From: Bacillota bacterium
GTDB taxonomy: Bacteria; Bacillota; Clostridia; Clostridiales; Clostridiaceae
DNA length: 46,775 nucleotides
Assembly (NCBI GenBank): GCA_021781655.1
Contig: JAJXWJ010000024.1
Coordinates: 1 to 46,775, forward strand
Reading direction: 5' to 3'
The translations under genes and the position numbers were made by a program. The notes beneath the pieces are model-generated. The model saw only the letters and a program-made list of their open reading frames with translations. It did no database searches and was not told where the DNA came from. The first letter of the stretch is position 1, and each line of letters begins with the position of its first letter. Of the stretch, positions 28,532-46,162 are shown piece by piece.

Positions 28532-29080
28532 TTATTTACCAAAATATCTGTCTAATAAGCCTTTGAAAGCAGAACCATGTCTAGCTTCATCTTTACACAT
28601 TTCATGAACTGTATCATGAATAGCATCGTAGTTCAATTTTTTAGCTAATGTAGCTAAATCTTTTTTACCTTGACAAGCACCATGCTCTGCATCAACTCTT
28701 AATTGTAAATTTTTCTTTGTGCTGTCTGTTACAACTTCTCCTAAAAGTTCTGCAAATTTTGAAGCATGTTCTGCTTCTTCAAAAGCTATTCTCTTATATG
28801 CTTCAGCGATTTCTGGATATCCTTCTCTATCTGCTTGACGACTCATAGCAAGATACATTCCAACTTCAGTACATTCTCCAGTAAAGTTAGCTCTTAATCC
28901 TTCTAAAACTTCAGCATCAACATCTTTTGCTATTCCAATCTTATGTTCATCAGCCCATGTAAGTTTATCATCTGATTTTTCAACAAATTTATCTTTTGTA
29001 GCTTTACAAACTGGACAAACTTCTGGAGCTTCTTCCCCTTCATAAACATATCCACATACTGAACAAACAAATTTTTTCAT
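28532..29080 (-). CDS. reverse rubrerythrin (rubredoxin domain first)
   Basis: A non-haem iron peroxidase or oxidase that detoxifies H2O2 and O2 with electrons from NADH via rubredoxin-type carriers. The order is reversed relative to classical rubrerythrin: a rubredoxin-like Fe(Cys)4 domain, [10 protein letters not shown] and CPVCKATK (residues 5-25), precedes a diiron four-helix domain with ligands in [32 protein letters not shown] and [17 protein letters not shown]. At 182 aa it matches the clostridial reverse rubrerythrins known to be PerR-controlled. ATG at 29080 follows GGGAGG by 8 bases. Its promoter contains a palindrome suited to PerR. Confidence 0.93.
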
Positions 29081-29145
29081 AATTATATCCTCCCAAACAA
29101 TAATCAAATTTTTATTTTATTAATTCTGTCTTACGACTTATGTTT

Positions 29146-35119: not shown

Positions 35120-37033
35120 TCAACTCAATCCTAATTTTTTTCTTTTATTAATTATGTGTGCTTCTATATTGTTTGCCACTTCAACTGGATTGTCCCCTAA
35201 TGCAATTTTTCCGCCTGTTAAACCTTCCACATCTTCTGTTAAAAGCTTTACAAGATTTGCTGCTCCTGTTAAAAATGGAGTTGGTGACAAATGGGTATAG
35301 GTTCCGTAGGCTAAAGCAAATATTCCGTCTATTGTAGCCTTTTGCTCCATCCATTCAGGAGCAGTAACTGCAATTGGAAGATCTTTTGTGTCCAAATCTA
35401 AATGATCTGCCAGTGCTGTTACTAGCATTGACATCCTTCCTGTATCCGTACATGTTCCAAAACTTAAAGCTGGTGGTATATTAAGCATTTTACAAACCTC
35501 AGCTAACCCTTTACCCGCACCTTTTATAGCTTCCAAATTGCATAGTCCTGCCACCTCTAATGCATGATTTCCACAACCTCCAGCTATTACTAAAATATCT
35601 TTTTTAATTAGTTCCTTTACTAAGTTTACAGTATTCCAGTCTTGAGGTCCATTTCTTAAGGTTGAACAATTTGCTAATGCAACTATTCCTTTAAGTTTAC
35701 CTGCTTTAATGACCTCTACTAATGGATCTAACTTATTACCTAGTACCTTTAATACCGCTTCGGTAGAAAATCCTGCAATTGCTTTTTGAATAATGTGAGG
35801 TACCTTTGATTCTATTTTATCCTTTCTTTTTATAAAGTTATCTATAGCATAATCTATAATTTTATCTACTGTTTCCTCAACCTTTTCAGGATAATATGGG
35901 AGCATATGACTCATTCCTGGTATTCCTATAATGGTACTTATGCCCACCAAGGTCACTTGATATTTTTCAGCATATTGATCTATATAAGGCGGAGAGCAGT
36001 TTTCATCCATAGCTATGACATCTACTGTTCCAGTAGCCAATAATGGCTCAATAGTTAGCCAATTTCCCATAAGCCCTACAAAAACATCATCAACTTCAAA
36101 TCTTTGTAAAAGCTCCTGACCTGTCTCAATTGATCCTACAATTCTAATACCTTTTGCTCCAGCTTTTTTTGCTTTTTCTTGAATTTTTTCCATCCTTGCC
36201 TTTTCTATTGTTGCTGCTCCTATAAAAGGCTGATGTCCATTAAATACGATATTAACATAGTTTGGATCCATTATTCCTAAATCCACATTTACCTCATGGG
36301 GAGTTGGAGTTCCAAACAAAATATCCTGTACCATTTCTAAGCCTATCTGAGCTGAATAAATCGTTGCAATTCCAAGCCTTAATGCTTTTTTAGCTAAAGA
36401 GATATAGTCTCCATCTACATTTGTTAAACAGCTCGCTACACAGTTTTGCTCCTCATGCAAAACTCCACTTGGAAATATGTCTAGCTCTTTCCAAACAATT
36501 TTTCTTTTTCTAGGAGCAAAAGCATCCACCATGGCACTTTTCTCTCCAGCACCTTTACTCATCTCTTCATTTAAAAAATCAGCAAGCTTTATTGCCATTT
36601 GATTTACATCACAATTAGTATCTATTCCTAGCTTTTCACACATCCATTTTAATTTATCTACATCTTTAATTTTAAAAGGTGTCTTTCCTTCTCCTGTTTT
36701 TCTAAGGGTTCTAAAAGCTTCATACGCATGATGACTATATGTACCAGCTCCCATAATATTTTTCAGTAGCATATTTCTCATTGCCATAGCATCTGGTCCT
36801 ATACCACAAACACCATTTTGCTGCTCACCCTTTAAATTAATTCTGCATGGTCCTTGTGAGCAGAGCTGACAGCTCATTCCTTCTAAACAAAATTTACATC
36901 GTATCTTTTCTTGTGCTATCCACCTATCAAAAACATTAGACATGCCATCTTTTCTAATTCTTTTTAACATTTCCTCTACTGAATCATGGTAGCTTACTCT
37001 TCCTTCAGCTTTTTCTAATATAGTTTCTGTCAT
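35120..37033 (-). CDS. CooS-family (CODH-like) protein with substituted C-cluster ligand
   Basis: A 637-aa homologue of the Ni,Fe-carbon monoxide dehydrogenase catalytic subunit. B-cluster cysteines C55, C58, C63 and C76 are present; the D-cluster motif is C46-x2-C49. C-cluster ligands by alignment with Carboxydothermus CODH-II: H267, C346, C456, C487 and C528 are kept, as are SHHAY (H101/H102) and K565 in PEWMEQKA. At the position of Cys295, however, the usual GICCTGNE block reads GSIETGQE, placing E303 there. A Glu ligand recalls hybrid-type clusters, so CO oxidation is doubtful and the symbol cooS is withheld. No cooF, cooC or acs genes are adjacent; it stands alone on the minus strand. 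Confidence 0.88.
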   Translation of the reverse strand: MTETILEKAEGRVSYHDSVEEMLKRIRKDGMSNVFDRWIAQEKIRCKFCLEGMSCQLCSQGPCRINLKGEQQNGVCGIGPDAMAMRNMLLKNIMGAGTYSHHAYEAFRTLRKTGEGKTPFKIKDVDKLKWMCEKLGIDTNCDVNQMAIKLADFLNEEMSKGAGEKSAMVDAFAPRKRKIVWKELDIFPSGVLHEEQNCVASCLTNVDGDYISLAKKALRLGIATIYSAQIGLEMVQDILFGTPTPHEVNVDLGIMDPNYVNIVFNGHQPFIGAATIEKARMEKIQEKAKKAGAKGIRIVGSIETGQELLQRFEVDDVFVGLMGNWLTIEPLLATGTVDVIAMDENCSPPYIDQYAEKYQVTLVGISTIIGIPGMSHMLPYYPEKVEETVDKIIDYAIDNFIKRKDKIESKVPHIIQKAIAGFSTEAVLKVLGNKLDPLVEVIKAGKLKGIVALANCSTLRNGPQDWNTVNLVKELIKKDILVIAGGCGNHALEVAGLCNLEAIKGAGKGLAEVCKMLNIPPALSFGTCTDTGRMSMLVTALADHLDLDTKDLPIAVTAPEWMEQKATIDGIFALAYGTYTHLSPTPFLTGAANLVKLLTEDVEGLTGGKIALGDNPVEVANNIEAHIINKRKKLGLS

Positions 37034-37219
37034 TTACCTATCACCTATCCTTTCAAACATAGTATGAGCAGTATAACAAAAAATATTTATTGAATTATTT
37101 TAATAGCTTTTAAAAATATTTTACTTTCTGTAATAAAACCGACACAAATTTATGTTATAAATTATGTATTGATGTCTATAATTATTTATATGCACACTTC
37201 TAGCATTGGAGATGGTACC

Positions 37220-43818: not shown

Positions 43819-45183
43819 TTATGCCATGAATTTTTCAAGATCAGCCTTTGCATCTCCACTTATTAATTGAAGATTAAAGTTATCTTGTAAAACTTTTAAT
43901 ACTCCAGGTGTAATAAATTTTGGTGCACTTGGTCCTACATGAATATTTTTTACTCCTAAGCTGAATAATCCAAGTAATATTGCTACAGCTTTTTGCTCAA
44001 ACCAAGATAATATTATGCTTAGTGGTAGTTCATTTACTGTACATCCAAAAGCTTCAGCTAATGCAAGAGCTATTTTAACAGCTGAACCTGAGTTGTTACA
44101 TTGGCCTAGGTCGATATATCTAGGAATATCTGTTCCCGGTACTGTTCCATAATCTACATCATTAAATCTAAATTTTCCACAAGAAGTTGTTAACAAAACC
44201 GCTTCCTTTGGCAACGATAGTGCTAATTCTCTATAATAATCTCTTCCTTTTGTTGGTGCATCACAACCAGCAATTACAAAAAATCTCTTTATCTTTCCTG
44301 TTTTAACAGCTTCAATTATTTCTGGGGCTATATTTAATACAGTATTATGATGGAAACCAGTTACAACAGTTTTAGTGGATTCTACATTTTTAACGCTTAA
44401 AGACAATGCTCTTTCTATTAGTGGACTAAAGTCTTCATTTTGTATTTTCTTAACTCCTTGAAGTCCTGCAGTACCATAAGTCCAAAACCTGTCACTATAC
44501 GTTCCTGTAGTTATTGGCATTAAGCAATTCGTAGTACCTAATATTGCTCCTGGGAATTCTTCAAAAAGCTTTCTTTGGTCATACCATGCTTTACCTACGT
44601 TTCCTTTTAAATGTGAATACTTTTTAAGTTCTGGATATCCATGTGCTGGAAGCATTTCTGAATGGGTGTATATATTAATTCCTTTTCCTTCTGTTTGTTT
44701 TAATAATTCTTCTAGGGCATATAAATTATGACCAGTTACTAATATGCAGTGTCCTTCAATTTTATCTTGAGATACAGCTACTGGTGTTGGCACTCCAAAT
44801 TTACTAGTATGTGCATTGTCAAGAGAATCCATTATTTTAACTGTTGCCTCACCAACTTTTAATGCCATACCTATGTTTTCTTCCAAACTGAAGTTTGAAT
44901 TTGTCAAAGTCGTATATAAAGCCTCATGAGTTATAGCATTTACTTCTTCATTATAAATACCTAATTCTCTTGCATGTGTAGCATAAGCTGCTACTCCTTT
45001 TAATCCGAAAATCATTATATCTTGAAGGCTAGCAATATCAGGATTTTTGCCACATACTCCAAACTTTGTGCATCCAGTTAAAGGTGTTTGCTCACACTGA
45101 TAACAAAACATTGGATTTGGCTCGCATTTATTTACCTCTTTATTTTCATTTTCTTTTTCATTATTTTTAAATAAACCAAACAT
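43819..45183 (-). CDS. hcp: hybrid-cluster protein (hydroxylamine / NO reductase family)
   Basis: A cytosolic Fe-S protein that reduces NO or hydroxylamine under nitrosative stress. The N-terminal cubane ligands are in CYQCEQTPLTGCTKFGVC (residues 27-44). Hybrid-cluster ligands seen in order: TGHNLYAL (His), HSEMLPAHGYPEL (Glu), GTTNCLMP, AGCDAPTKGRDYY (persulfide Cys), TTSCGKFRFN, DLGQCNNSGSA and LSWFEQKAVAIL (Glu), so the active site is complete. At 454 aa it is about 100 residues shorter than class I proteins, matching the shorter class III. AAAGGAG precedes the ATG. It is divergent from the hemerythrin gene. Confidence 0.95.
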   Translation of the reverse strand: MFGLFKNNEKENENKEVNKCEPNPMFCYQCEQTPLTGCTKFGVCGKNPDIASLQDIMIFGLKGVAAYATHARELGIYNEEVNAITHEALYTTLTNSNFSLEENIGMALKVGEATVKIMDSLDNAHTSKFGVPTPVAVSQDKIEGHCILVTGHNLYALEELLKQTEGKGINIYTHSEMLPAHGYPELKKYSHLKGNVGKAWYDQRKLFEEFPGAILGTTNCLMPITTGTYSDRFWTYGTAGLQGVKKIQNEDFSPLIERALSLSVKNVESTKTVVTGFHHNTVLNIAPEIIEAVKTGKIKRFFVIAGCDAPTKGRDYYRELALSLPKEAVLLTTSCGKFRFNDVDYGTVPGTDIPRYIDLGQCNNSGSAVKIALALAEAFGCTVNELPLSIILSWFEQKAVAILLGLFSLGVKNIHVGPSAPKFITPGVLKVLQDNFNLQLISGDAKADLEKFMA

Positions 45184-45397: not shown

Positions 45398-46162
45398 ATG
45401 TATAACGTAACCGAAGATCGAATCCAAAAGCTTACTACACTTTTAACTAAACTTAATAATGAAGGTATTACTGAAGATGCTAGAAGAGACGCCTTAAATA
45501 TAGTAGCAAATATAGACCCAATAGAATTATCTATAGCTGAGCAAAGATTAATTGAAGAGGGTATGAATCCTGAAGATTTACGAAACCTTTGTGACATTCA
45601 TATGGAAGTATTAAGTGATGAACTGGTTAAACTTAAGATGAAGCTTAAACCAGGTCATATGCTAGATACACTAATAATTGAACATGAAAAAATAAAAGAA
45701 TTTTTAACAGAATTAGAAGCATTAAATTTTGAAGTTCAAAAATTAACCTCATTTGATGAAAATAAACAACTATTTTTAACACTTTCCCAATTAGCAAAAA
45801 ATATAATCGATGCAGAAAATCATCACAAACGTGAAGAAGATGTTCTTTTCCCAGAACTTGAAAAAAGAAATATTACAGGTCCAACTAGAATTATGAGAAT
45901 GGAACACGATCAATTAAGAAGTAAAAAAAGACTTCTTAAAGCTACTGCTGAAAATACAACTACTGAAAATTTTGATAATTCAAAGAAAGAAATAGATGAA
46001 CTTGCCAAATATATAGTTTTCAATCTTAGAGACCATATTTATAAAGAAAACTATATTTTATATCCAACAGCAATCGATGCGTTGCAAGATAATGGTTTAT
46101 GGGAAGAAATGAAGCATAGAAGTGACGAAATTGGTTATTGCCCTTGGACCCCAAAAAATTAA
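45398..46162 (+). CDS. DUF438 plus hemerythrin-like diiron protein
   Basis: A 254-aa cytosolic protein. The N-terminal 80 residues form a DUF438 domain (VTEDRIQKLTTLLTKLNNEG, SIAEQRLIEEGMNPEDLRNL), followed by a four-helix hemerythrin domain with putative iron ligands in IIEHEKIKEF, ENHHKREEDVLFPELE, RMEHDQLRSKK and RDHIYKENYILYP. Such proteins bind O2 or NO or protect Fe-S clusters. CGYPWTP-like sequence near the C-terminus (GYCPWTPK) is typical. It is divergent from hcp, shares a palindrome with the ferredoxin gene, and is followed after 18 bases by a DUF2249-like ORF. AGGAGG precedes the ATG. Confidence 0.92.
   Translation: MYNVTEDRIQKLTTLLTKLNNEGITEDARRDALNIVANIDPIELSIAEQRLIEEGMNPEDLRNLCDIHMEVLSDELVKLKMKLKPGHMLDTLIIEHEKIKEFLTELEALNFEVQKLTSFDENKQLFLTLSQLAKNIIDAENHHKREEDVLFPELEKRNITGPTRIMRMEHDQLRSKKRLLKATAENTTTENFDNSKKEIDELAKYIVFNLRDHIYKENYILYPTAIDALQDNGLWEEMKHRSDEIGYCPWTPKN

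What the first reader, a model, noticed from the sequence alone, without database searches (positions are those of the whole stretch)
35120..37033. CooS-family protein with Glu in place of the C-cluster cysteine: possible hybrid-cluster enzyme
All other recognisable C-cluster ligands are kept (H267, C346, C456, C487, C528) and so is the catalytic-site Lys (K565), but the GICCTGNE block that carries Cys295 in CODH-II reads GSIETGQE, with E303 at that position. Hybrid clusters in Hcp use Glu plus His and Cys ligands. From memory, Carboxydothermus CODH-V has been reported to hold a morphing Fe/S/O cluster in a CODH scaffold with hydroxylamine-reducing rather than CO activity. The same window encodes a true Hcp. 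The protein may be an N-oxide reductase or redox sensor misannotated as CO dehydrogenase; there is no cooF, cooC or acs partner.
Basis: partly seen in the sequence, partly recalled or inferred. Interest (0 to 1): 0.75.

Follow-up and report, generated by a model that had tools for sequence, protein, structure and literature searches.

The report
Hybrid-cluster CO-dehydrogenase look-alike protein
This protein looks like a carbon-monoxide-oxidising enzyme but belongs to a known side branch whose metal centre has been rebuilt for other chemistry, and its gene carries what looks like a spore-formation switch, which would give this orphan branch a first testable biological role.

Summary
In detail: the 637-aa CooS-type protein at 35120-37033 (-) has Glu303 in the column of CODH Cys295. 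The kind is already known. Its best solved relative by far is Carboxydothermus CooS-V (7B7Q, 860 bits, 60.8% identity; next 417 bits), which has the same Glu295, a Ni-free Fe/S/O hybrid cluster and no CO activity. The window protein shows the sequence marks of structural group D-1 and lies inside a Glu clade with 100/100 support. It is a new member of a known kind.

Two results go beyond the papers I saw. In 24 of 55 Clostridiaceae genomes with this gene (this one included) it is the only CODH gene detected and ACS is absent, whereas the CooS-V paper says such genes occur only beside other CODHs. And the orthologs share an upstream element, TacATAt-N12/13-tGagaAAACT, that resembles forespore (sigma-G/F) promoters of the same family; Hcp, Cys-type CODH and spoIVA controls lack it. 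The window has a weaker site at 37061-37089. Best reading: a low-potential hybrid-cluster reductase or redox protein, probably made in the forespore. The chemistry rests on homology, the spore role on promoter sequence; neither was tested.

The parts
35120..37033 (-). Glu-type CooS (structural group D-1, CooS-V type), 637 aa
36125..36127 (-). codon of Glu303, in the column of CODH Cys295
   Evidence: coordinate computed from the ORF start
36737..36739 (-). codon of Tyr99, in the column of the CODH acid-base His
   Evidence: coordinate computed from the ORF start
35345..35347 (-). codon of Glu563, aligned with CooS-V Glu556
   Evidence: ligand role from PMC9311411; coordinate computed
36806..36898 (-). 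D- and B-cluster cysteines C46, C49, C55, C58, C63, C76 (type III D-cluster C-x2-C-x5-C)
   Evidence: coordinate computed
37061..37089 (-). predicted forespore-type promoter TAAATAT-N12-TGCTCATACT, first base 56 nt before the ATG

Best explanation
A CooS-V-type (structural group D-1) protein. SHOWN here: sequence, ligand set, clade, distribution, promoter resemblance. INFERRED from the solved homologue CooS-V: a homodimer with a bridging [2Fe-2S] cluster, a [4Fe-4S] B-cluster, and an Fe/S/O hybrid cluster where true CODHs hold Ni, with His267, Glu303, Cys346, Cys456, Cys487, Cys528 and Glu563 as the counterparts of the CooS-V cluster residues, and no CO oxidation. In CooS-V reduction opens a gas channel to the cluster and oxidation closes it, so the protein would act as a low-potential reductase or redox switch for a small oxidant not yet identified. 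INFERRED from promoter sequence: in the lineage of at least 70% identity the gene is transcribed in the forespore by sigma-G or sigma-F RNA polymerase, so the protein would be packed into the spore for redox protection; it is not part of CO metabolism. My odds by step: D-1 member 0.95; hybrid cluster without CO activity 0.9; forespore transcription in that lineage 0.65; in this genome 0.5. The confidence below is for the whole statement.
For: Best PDB match CooS-V, 860 bits against 417 for the next; 60.8% identity with all cluster residues kept. Glu clade 100/100 with window and CooS-V inside. No other CODH over cut-off in 24 of 55 Clostridiaceae genomes with the gene, and no ACS in the 25 tested. 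No conserved neighbour (at most 13 of 81 loci). Forespore models built from SASP and spoIIR genes score 80 ortholog upstreams above 582 flanking-gene upstreams (AUC 0.753 joint, 0.766 SASP, 0.695 spoIIR; spoIVA 0.49). De novo motif on 92 upstreams: log-likelihood 344 against -59 to -66 shuffled and -61 to -70 control genes; its -10 matrix correlates 0.88 with SASP, 0.69 with spoIIR, 0.20 with spoIVA. Transfer between lineages AUC 0.759 and 0.908; ortholog model finds SASP 0.815 and spoIIR 0.898 but not spoIVA 0.36 or Cys-type CODH 0.546. 17 further orthologs of at least 70% identity, overlaps removed: AUC 0.957, 14 above the controls' 95th percentile. Hcp upstreams 0.52-0.58. Window site: 99.7th percentile (joint model), 98.6th with the window left out of training. 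C. difficile sigma-G regulon holds sodA, cotG catalase and rubrerythrin (PMC3789822 passages).
Against: No protein or RNA was measured. Orthologs at 52-66% identity show little of the promoter signal (AUC 0.619, 10 of 41 above the 95th percentile), and the nearest relative L006 has no good site. The window's site is only at the 84.7th percentile with the spoIIR model. The SASP model alone puts 0 of 80 ortholog upstreams above the controls' 99th percentile. Sequences are related, so p-values overstate. CODHs of unknown type are seen in growing cells: CTK_C21760 of C. tyrobutyricum, falling later, and CooS-1 of C. ljungdahlii, called abundant in a proteomic sample. A Glu-type gene also lies on a contig labelled Calditrichales (L053), a group not known to sporulate (recalled).
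Confidence: 0.5

Rival explanations
1. Hybrid-cluster CooS expressed in growing cells as an N-oxide (NO, hydroxylamine) or peroxide detoxifying reductase, alongside Hcp.
For: Hydroxylamine oxidises the CooS-V cluster and is turned over slowly; an Hcp and a DUF438-hemerythrin gene lie in the same window; clade D and HCP co-occur (PMC13056359 passages).
Against: Turnover is very low and NO reduction was not detected; Hcp is in 58 of 59 family genomes, so co-occurrence is uninformative; Hcp upstreams lack the shared element.
Confidence: 0.25
2. The conserved upstream element is real but belongs to another sigma factor or regulator that resembles forespore promoters; the protein is a vegetative redox sensor or electron buffer.
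For: Related sigma factors share promoter features (recalled); the window site is weaker than many; orthologs of lower identity mostly lack it.
Against: The -10 matrix correlates 0.88 with SASP promoters of the same family at zero offset, and the ortholog model finds SASP and spoIIR promoters in turn.
Confidence: 0.2
3. A working Ni,Fe-CODH that tolerates Glu at position 295.
For: Five of six C-cluster ligands and the Lys are kept.
Against: CooS-V with the same ligand set has no Ni and no CO activity; C295E of CODH-II is Ni-deficient and inactive; the acid-base His is Tyr.
Confidence: 0.03

Closest known systems
CooS-V (CODH-V) of Carboxydothermus hydrogenoformans, PDB 7B7Q
   Same: Same Glu, Tyr, type III D-cluster and second Glu; all other cluster residues; full-length match at 60.8% identity; same clade
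   Different: In this genome no other CODH was found, whereas C. hydrogenoformans has four more; a forespore-type promoter is predicted here
Ni,Fe-CODH (CooS clades with Cys295, e.g. 6ELQ)
   Same: Fold family; five of six C-cluster ligands; Lys565
   Different: Cys295 is Glu303; acid-base His is Tyr99; 35.5% identity to 6ELQ
Hybrid cluster protein (Hcp)
   Same: Prismane family; Glu at the Hcp Glu494 site; hybrid-type cluster expected
   Different: Scores 46.5 bits against TIGR01703, cut-off 360.8; keeps the CODH D-cluster; Hcp upstreams lack the promoter element

Membership tests
CooS structural group D-1 (CooS-V type) | first C-cluster Cys replaced by Glu | tested here: met
   E303; definition from PMC6344411 passages
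CooS structural group D-1 (CooS-V type) | type III D-cluster, C-x2-C-x5-C | tested here: met
   C46, C49, C55
CooS structural group D-1 (CooS-V type) | Tyr at the acid-base His | tested here: met
   Y99
CooS structural group D-1 (CooS-V type) | falls in one clade with CooS-V | tested here: met
   30 Glu rows one side of a branch, 100/100; weaker, 68, with Hcp outgroup in a quick tree
CooS structural group D-1 (CooS-V type) | Fe/S/O hybrid cluster, no Ni, no CO activity | not testable with these tools
   inferred from CooS-V
Ni,Fe-CODH | Cys at position 295 | tested here: not met
   E303
Ni,Fe-CODH | acid-base His | tested here: not met
   Y99
Ni,Fe-CODH | maturation partners CooC, CooJ, CooT | not tested
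   no genome-wide search made
Hcp | score over the curated cut-off of TIGR01703 | tested here: not met
   46.5 bits, cut-off 360.8
forespore (sigma-G/F) regulon | forespore-type promoter | tested here: inconclusive
   strong for the lineage of at least 70% identity, moderate for the window gene, weak beyond
forespore (sigma-G/F) regulon | transcription lost in sigF or sigG mutants | not testable with these tools
   needs mutants and RNA-seq

The most novel reading that the evidence does not exclude
Clostridial CooS-V-type proteins are forespore proteins: a hybrid-cluster enzyme of the CODH family, cut loose from CO metabolism and put under sigma-G/F control to protect or sense the redox state of the spore. 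This would be a first physiological role for group D-1.
Probability: 0.5. Interest if true: 0.7.

Novelty: new member of a known kind. Interest (0 to 1): 0.5.

Why it matters
Group D-1 CooS proteins are common in the Clostridia sampled here (55 of 187 Clostridiaceae genomes), score as CO dehydrogenases in NCBI's family model, and have no established function in the papers I saw. Finding them as the only CODH gene in ACS-free genomes separates them from CO metabolism. A shared forespore-type promoter gives a hypothesis that spore proteomics or a sigG mutant can test directly.

Tried and rejected
Gene neighbourhood: 1081 ORFs around 81 loci clustered; no conserved partner (best 13 of 81). Palindrome and word search upstream: no palindrome clearly above shuffles, but TACATATT and GAAAACTT exceeded them and led to the promoter test. 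Hcp co-occurrence: dropped as evidence, Hcp in 58 of 59 genomes. Sporulation co-occurrence: all 65 genomes of the phylum draw with a match of at least 47% identity are in the spoIVA list (read by eye; 339 of 398 overall; chance 1e-5 if independent), but so are the 13 genomes with only weaker, Cys-type-range matches, so I give it little weight. 0 of 7 SASP-less Clostridiaceae have the gene (chance 0.068). C. difficile CD0174 (sigma-B regulon, PMC7494833 passages) was set aside: its operon with two oxidoreductases suggests clade C, but its sequence was not checked. AlphaFold model: mean pLDDT 69, poor at 1-82 and 559-589; Foldseek ranks CooS-V first (TM 0.82 against 0.78 or less among the 50 rows shown), rmsd 9; used for ranking only. 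One search is void: minus-strand loci were not turned and the motif fell on the ribosome site in two of three sets; one search replaced it.

Limits: L043 dropped as too short, 80 of 81 upstreams used; 7 of 99 dropped as redundant; 1 of 30 Hcp upstreams unusable. Of the 60 upstreams fetched as independent, 2 (L281, L282) proved identical to named rows and were removed; still hold them. By shuffles (joint model, p at most 0.05): named orthologs 29 of 80, independent 13 of 58, Cys-type CODH 1 of 20, flanking genes 21 of 200, so the controls themselves exceed 5%. The spoIVA model scores Hcp upstreams high (AUC 0.70), unexplained. Glu was read directly in 49 of the 55 Clostridiaceae orthologs (20 of the 24 lone ones) and in the 12 fetched Glu-range loci; the others are assigned by identity. 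That SASP genes are sigma-G-driven is supported by PMC3789822 passages; spoIIR as sigma-F and spoIVA as sigma-E are recalled.

Literature: no forespore role of this protein was found in the searches (open library only; listings, and passages of some papers); 'spore' and 'sporul' do not occur in the main texts of PMC9311411, PMC13056359 and PMC10502027.

Full report
What is there. The ORF at 35120-37033 on the minus strand encodes 637 aa from an ATG. It matches TIGR01702 at 874.9 bits over residues 14-636. Against solved structures the best match is 7B7Q, CooS-V of Carboxydothermus hydrogenoformans, at 860.4 bits; the next is 6T7J at 417.1. E303 aligns with Glu295 of CooS-V and with the second Cys of the CCTGNE block of 6ELQ.

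More than chance. I aligned 146 distinct rows: the window protein, 143 loci and two PDB chains. 117 have Glu in this column and 29 have Cys. Loci were chosen by similarity to the window, so these are not frequencies in nature. The Glu rows have Tyr at the acid-base His column (117 of 117), Cys49 of the type III D-cluster (116 of 117) and Glu at column 563 (115; one Asp, one gap). Inoue et al. 2019 (PMC6344411, passages) describe structural group D-1 by Glu for the first C-cluster Cys, a type III D-cluster and Tyr for His. In a 59-row tree the 30 Glu rows are one side of a branch with 100/100 support and hold both the window protein and CooS-V. Cys-type relatives fit Inoue's other groups: GSMCTGQE proteins with a type II D-cluster and Tyr look like D-3/D-4, and GHVCEGQ proteins with type III and Asn look like D-2 (assignment mine).

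What is known. Jeoung et al. 2022 (PMC9311411; parts 1-4 of 5 read) solved CooS-V: an Fe/S/O hybrid cluster without Ni, no CO oxidation or CO2 reduction, hydroxylamine reduction at 0.13 per s, no NO reduction above background, and a cluster that rearranges on reduction and opens a channel. They name the Cys-to-Glu exchange as the mark of a subclade. Its chemistry is inferred from 60.8% identity with the cluster residues kept; nothing was measured here.

Distribution. 55 carry an ortholog, at 73-83% identity for the 54 besides the window's own; every other match listed at E 1e-100 or better has at most 39%. For 25 of the 55 the listing, which stops near 496 bits, showed no second CODH. re-searched those 25 and found one more (G127, 493.7 bits), leaving 24 of 55 with no other match over the cut-off of 478; the weak matches left (25-39 bits) are in the range of Hcp. 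Four of the 24 (G171, G132, G106, G108) are single-contig genomes, so draft gaps are not the cause there. ACS (PF19436) was found in 0 of the 25, and PF03598 not in the own genome. The own genome has this CooS and three Hcp genes. Cdh-type CODHs of the archaeal kind were not searched for separately. 30 of 55 do have another CODH, in line with the co-occurrence others report (PMC13056359 passages).

Context. Clustering ORFs within 8 kb of 81 orthologs finds no conserved neighbour; the most frequent family is in 13 loci. This agrees with the report that 64% of clade D genes have no associated neighbour (PMC13056359 passages). In the window 18 of 48 listed ORFs were scanned; apart from this CooS and the Hcp none matched a CODH-related model. 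cooC and cooF were not searched for in the genome.

Upstream element. The words TACATATT and GAAAACTT recur before the gene. I built promoter models from 30 SASP, 30 spoIIR and 30 spoIVA upstreams of the same family. On 80 ortholog upstreams against 582 upstreams of flanking genes the joint SASP+spoIIR model gives AUC 0.753, SASP 0.766, spoIIR 0.695 and spoIVA 0.49. De novo, 92 non-redundant upstreams give TacATAt-N12/13-tGagaAAACT with log-likelihood 344, against -59 to -66 for five shuffled sets and -61 to -70 for four draws of control genes (these with 15 starts each, the real set with 25). The -10 matrix correlates 0.88 with SASP, 0.69 with spoIIR and 0.20 with spoIVA. AAACT in the upstream stretch of about -80 to -30: 46 of 92 orthologs, 61 of 582 controls, 22 of 30 SASP, 5 of 20 Cys-type CODHs, 0 of 30 spoIVA, 2 of 29 Hcp. 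A model trained on the 22 Desulfosporosinus-type and related rows finds the 57 others (AUC 0.759), and the reverse holds (0.908). The ortholog model finds SASP (0.815) and spoIIR (0.898), not spoIVA (0.36) or Cys-type CODH (0.546). On 17 further orthologs of at least 70% identity, two overlaps removed, it gives 0.957 with 14 above the controls' 95th percentile; on 41 at 52-66% only 0.619 with 10. Hcp upstreams give 0.52-0.58 with the forespore models and 0 to 2 of 29 above the 95th percentile.

The window's own site is TAAATAT-N12-TGCTCATACT at 37061-37089, minus strand, first base 56 nt before the ATG. It stands at the 99.7th percentile of the controls with the joint model, 98.1st with SASP, 84.7th with spoIIR and 92.3rd with spoIVA; 98.6th with an ortholog model trained without it; shuffle p 0.01 joint, 0.03 SASP, 0.23 spoIIR, 0.06 spoIVA. 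It scores below the best ortholog sites, and the nearest relative L006 has no good one. The own genome has SASP, spoIIR and spoIVA genes.

Reading. The best account is a low-potential hybrid-cluster protein made in the forespore, where C. difficile places superoxide dismutase, a catalase and rubrerythrin under sigma-G (PMC3789822 passages). The substrate is unknown; a small oxidant that reaches the reduced cluster through the gated channel is the simplest guess. A role outside ordinary growth would also fit the report that deleting the clade D CODH of C. autoethanogenum had no immediate effect beyond a moderately lower biomass yield (cited in PMC13056359). Steps shown: sequence, clade, distribution, promoter resemblance. 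Steps inferred: cluster type, lack of CO activity, transcription by sigma-G/F, place in the spore, protective role.

Open point. Jeoung et al. see the Glu form as derived from CODHs; Fujishiro and Takaoka (PMC10502027 passages) see CODH-V as an early form on the way from Hcp to CODH. In a quick tree with seven Hcp rows as outgroup the root falls between the Glu and Cys groups, with SH-aLRT support of 68 for the Glu and 90 for the Cys group and a very long outgroup branch. This does not settle it.

Noticed in passing
43819-45183 (-) and 45398-46162 (+): A short 454-aa Hcp that lacks profile positions 36-119 of TIGR01703, next to a divergent DUF438-hemerythrin gene; the same short Hcp form appears in six other family genomes sampled (G080, G081, G104, G105, G087, G136).
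   Followed up: partly
28532-29107 (-): Rubrerythrin gene; a rubrerythrin is in the sigma-G regulon of C. difficile.
   Followed up: no
L173 (G356:C21): Glu-type CooS with a degenerate cluster site: GSCETGQE, Asn345 to Gly, Cys346 to Ser, Glu563 to Asp, on a long branch.
   Followed up: no
L053: A contig labelled Calditrichales carries a 76% identical Glu-type CooS; transfer or mislabelling.
   Followed up: no
L156, L157, L158, L166 and L149, L159, L161, L162: Other non-standard CODHs of the family: the first four (FYGICCSG block) have Asp at column 346; the second four (GCTCVGQ-type block) have Gln at the Lys565 column.
   Followed up: no
G301:C18:120876-122786: An ortholog at 74% identity with one in-frame TGA.
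   Followed up: no
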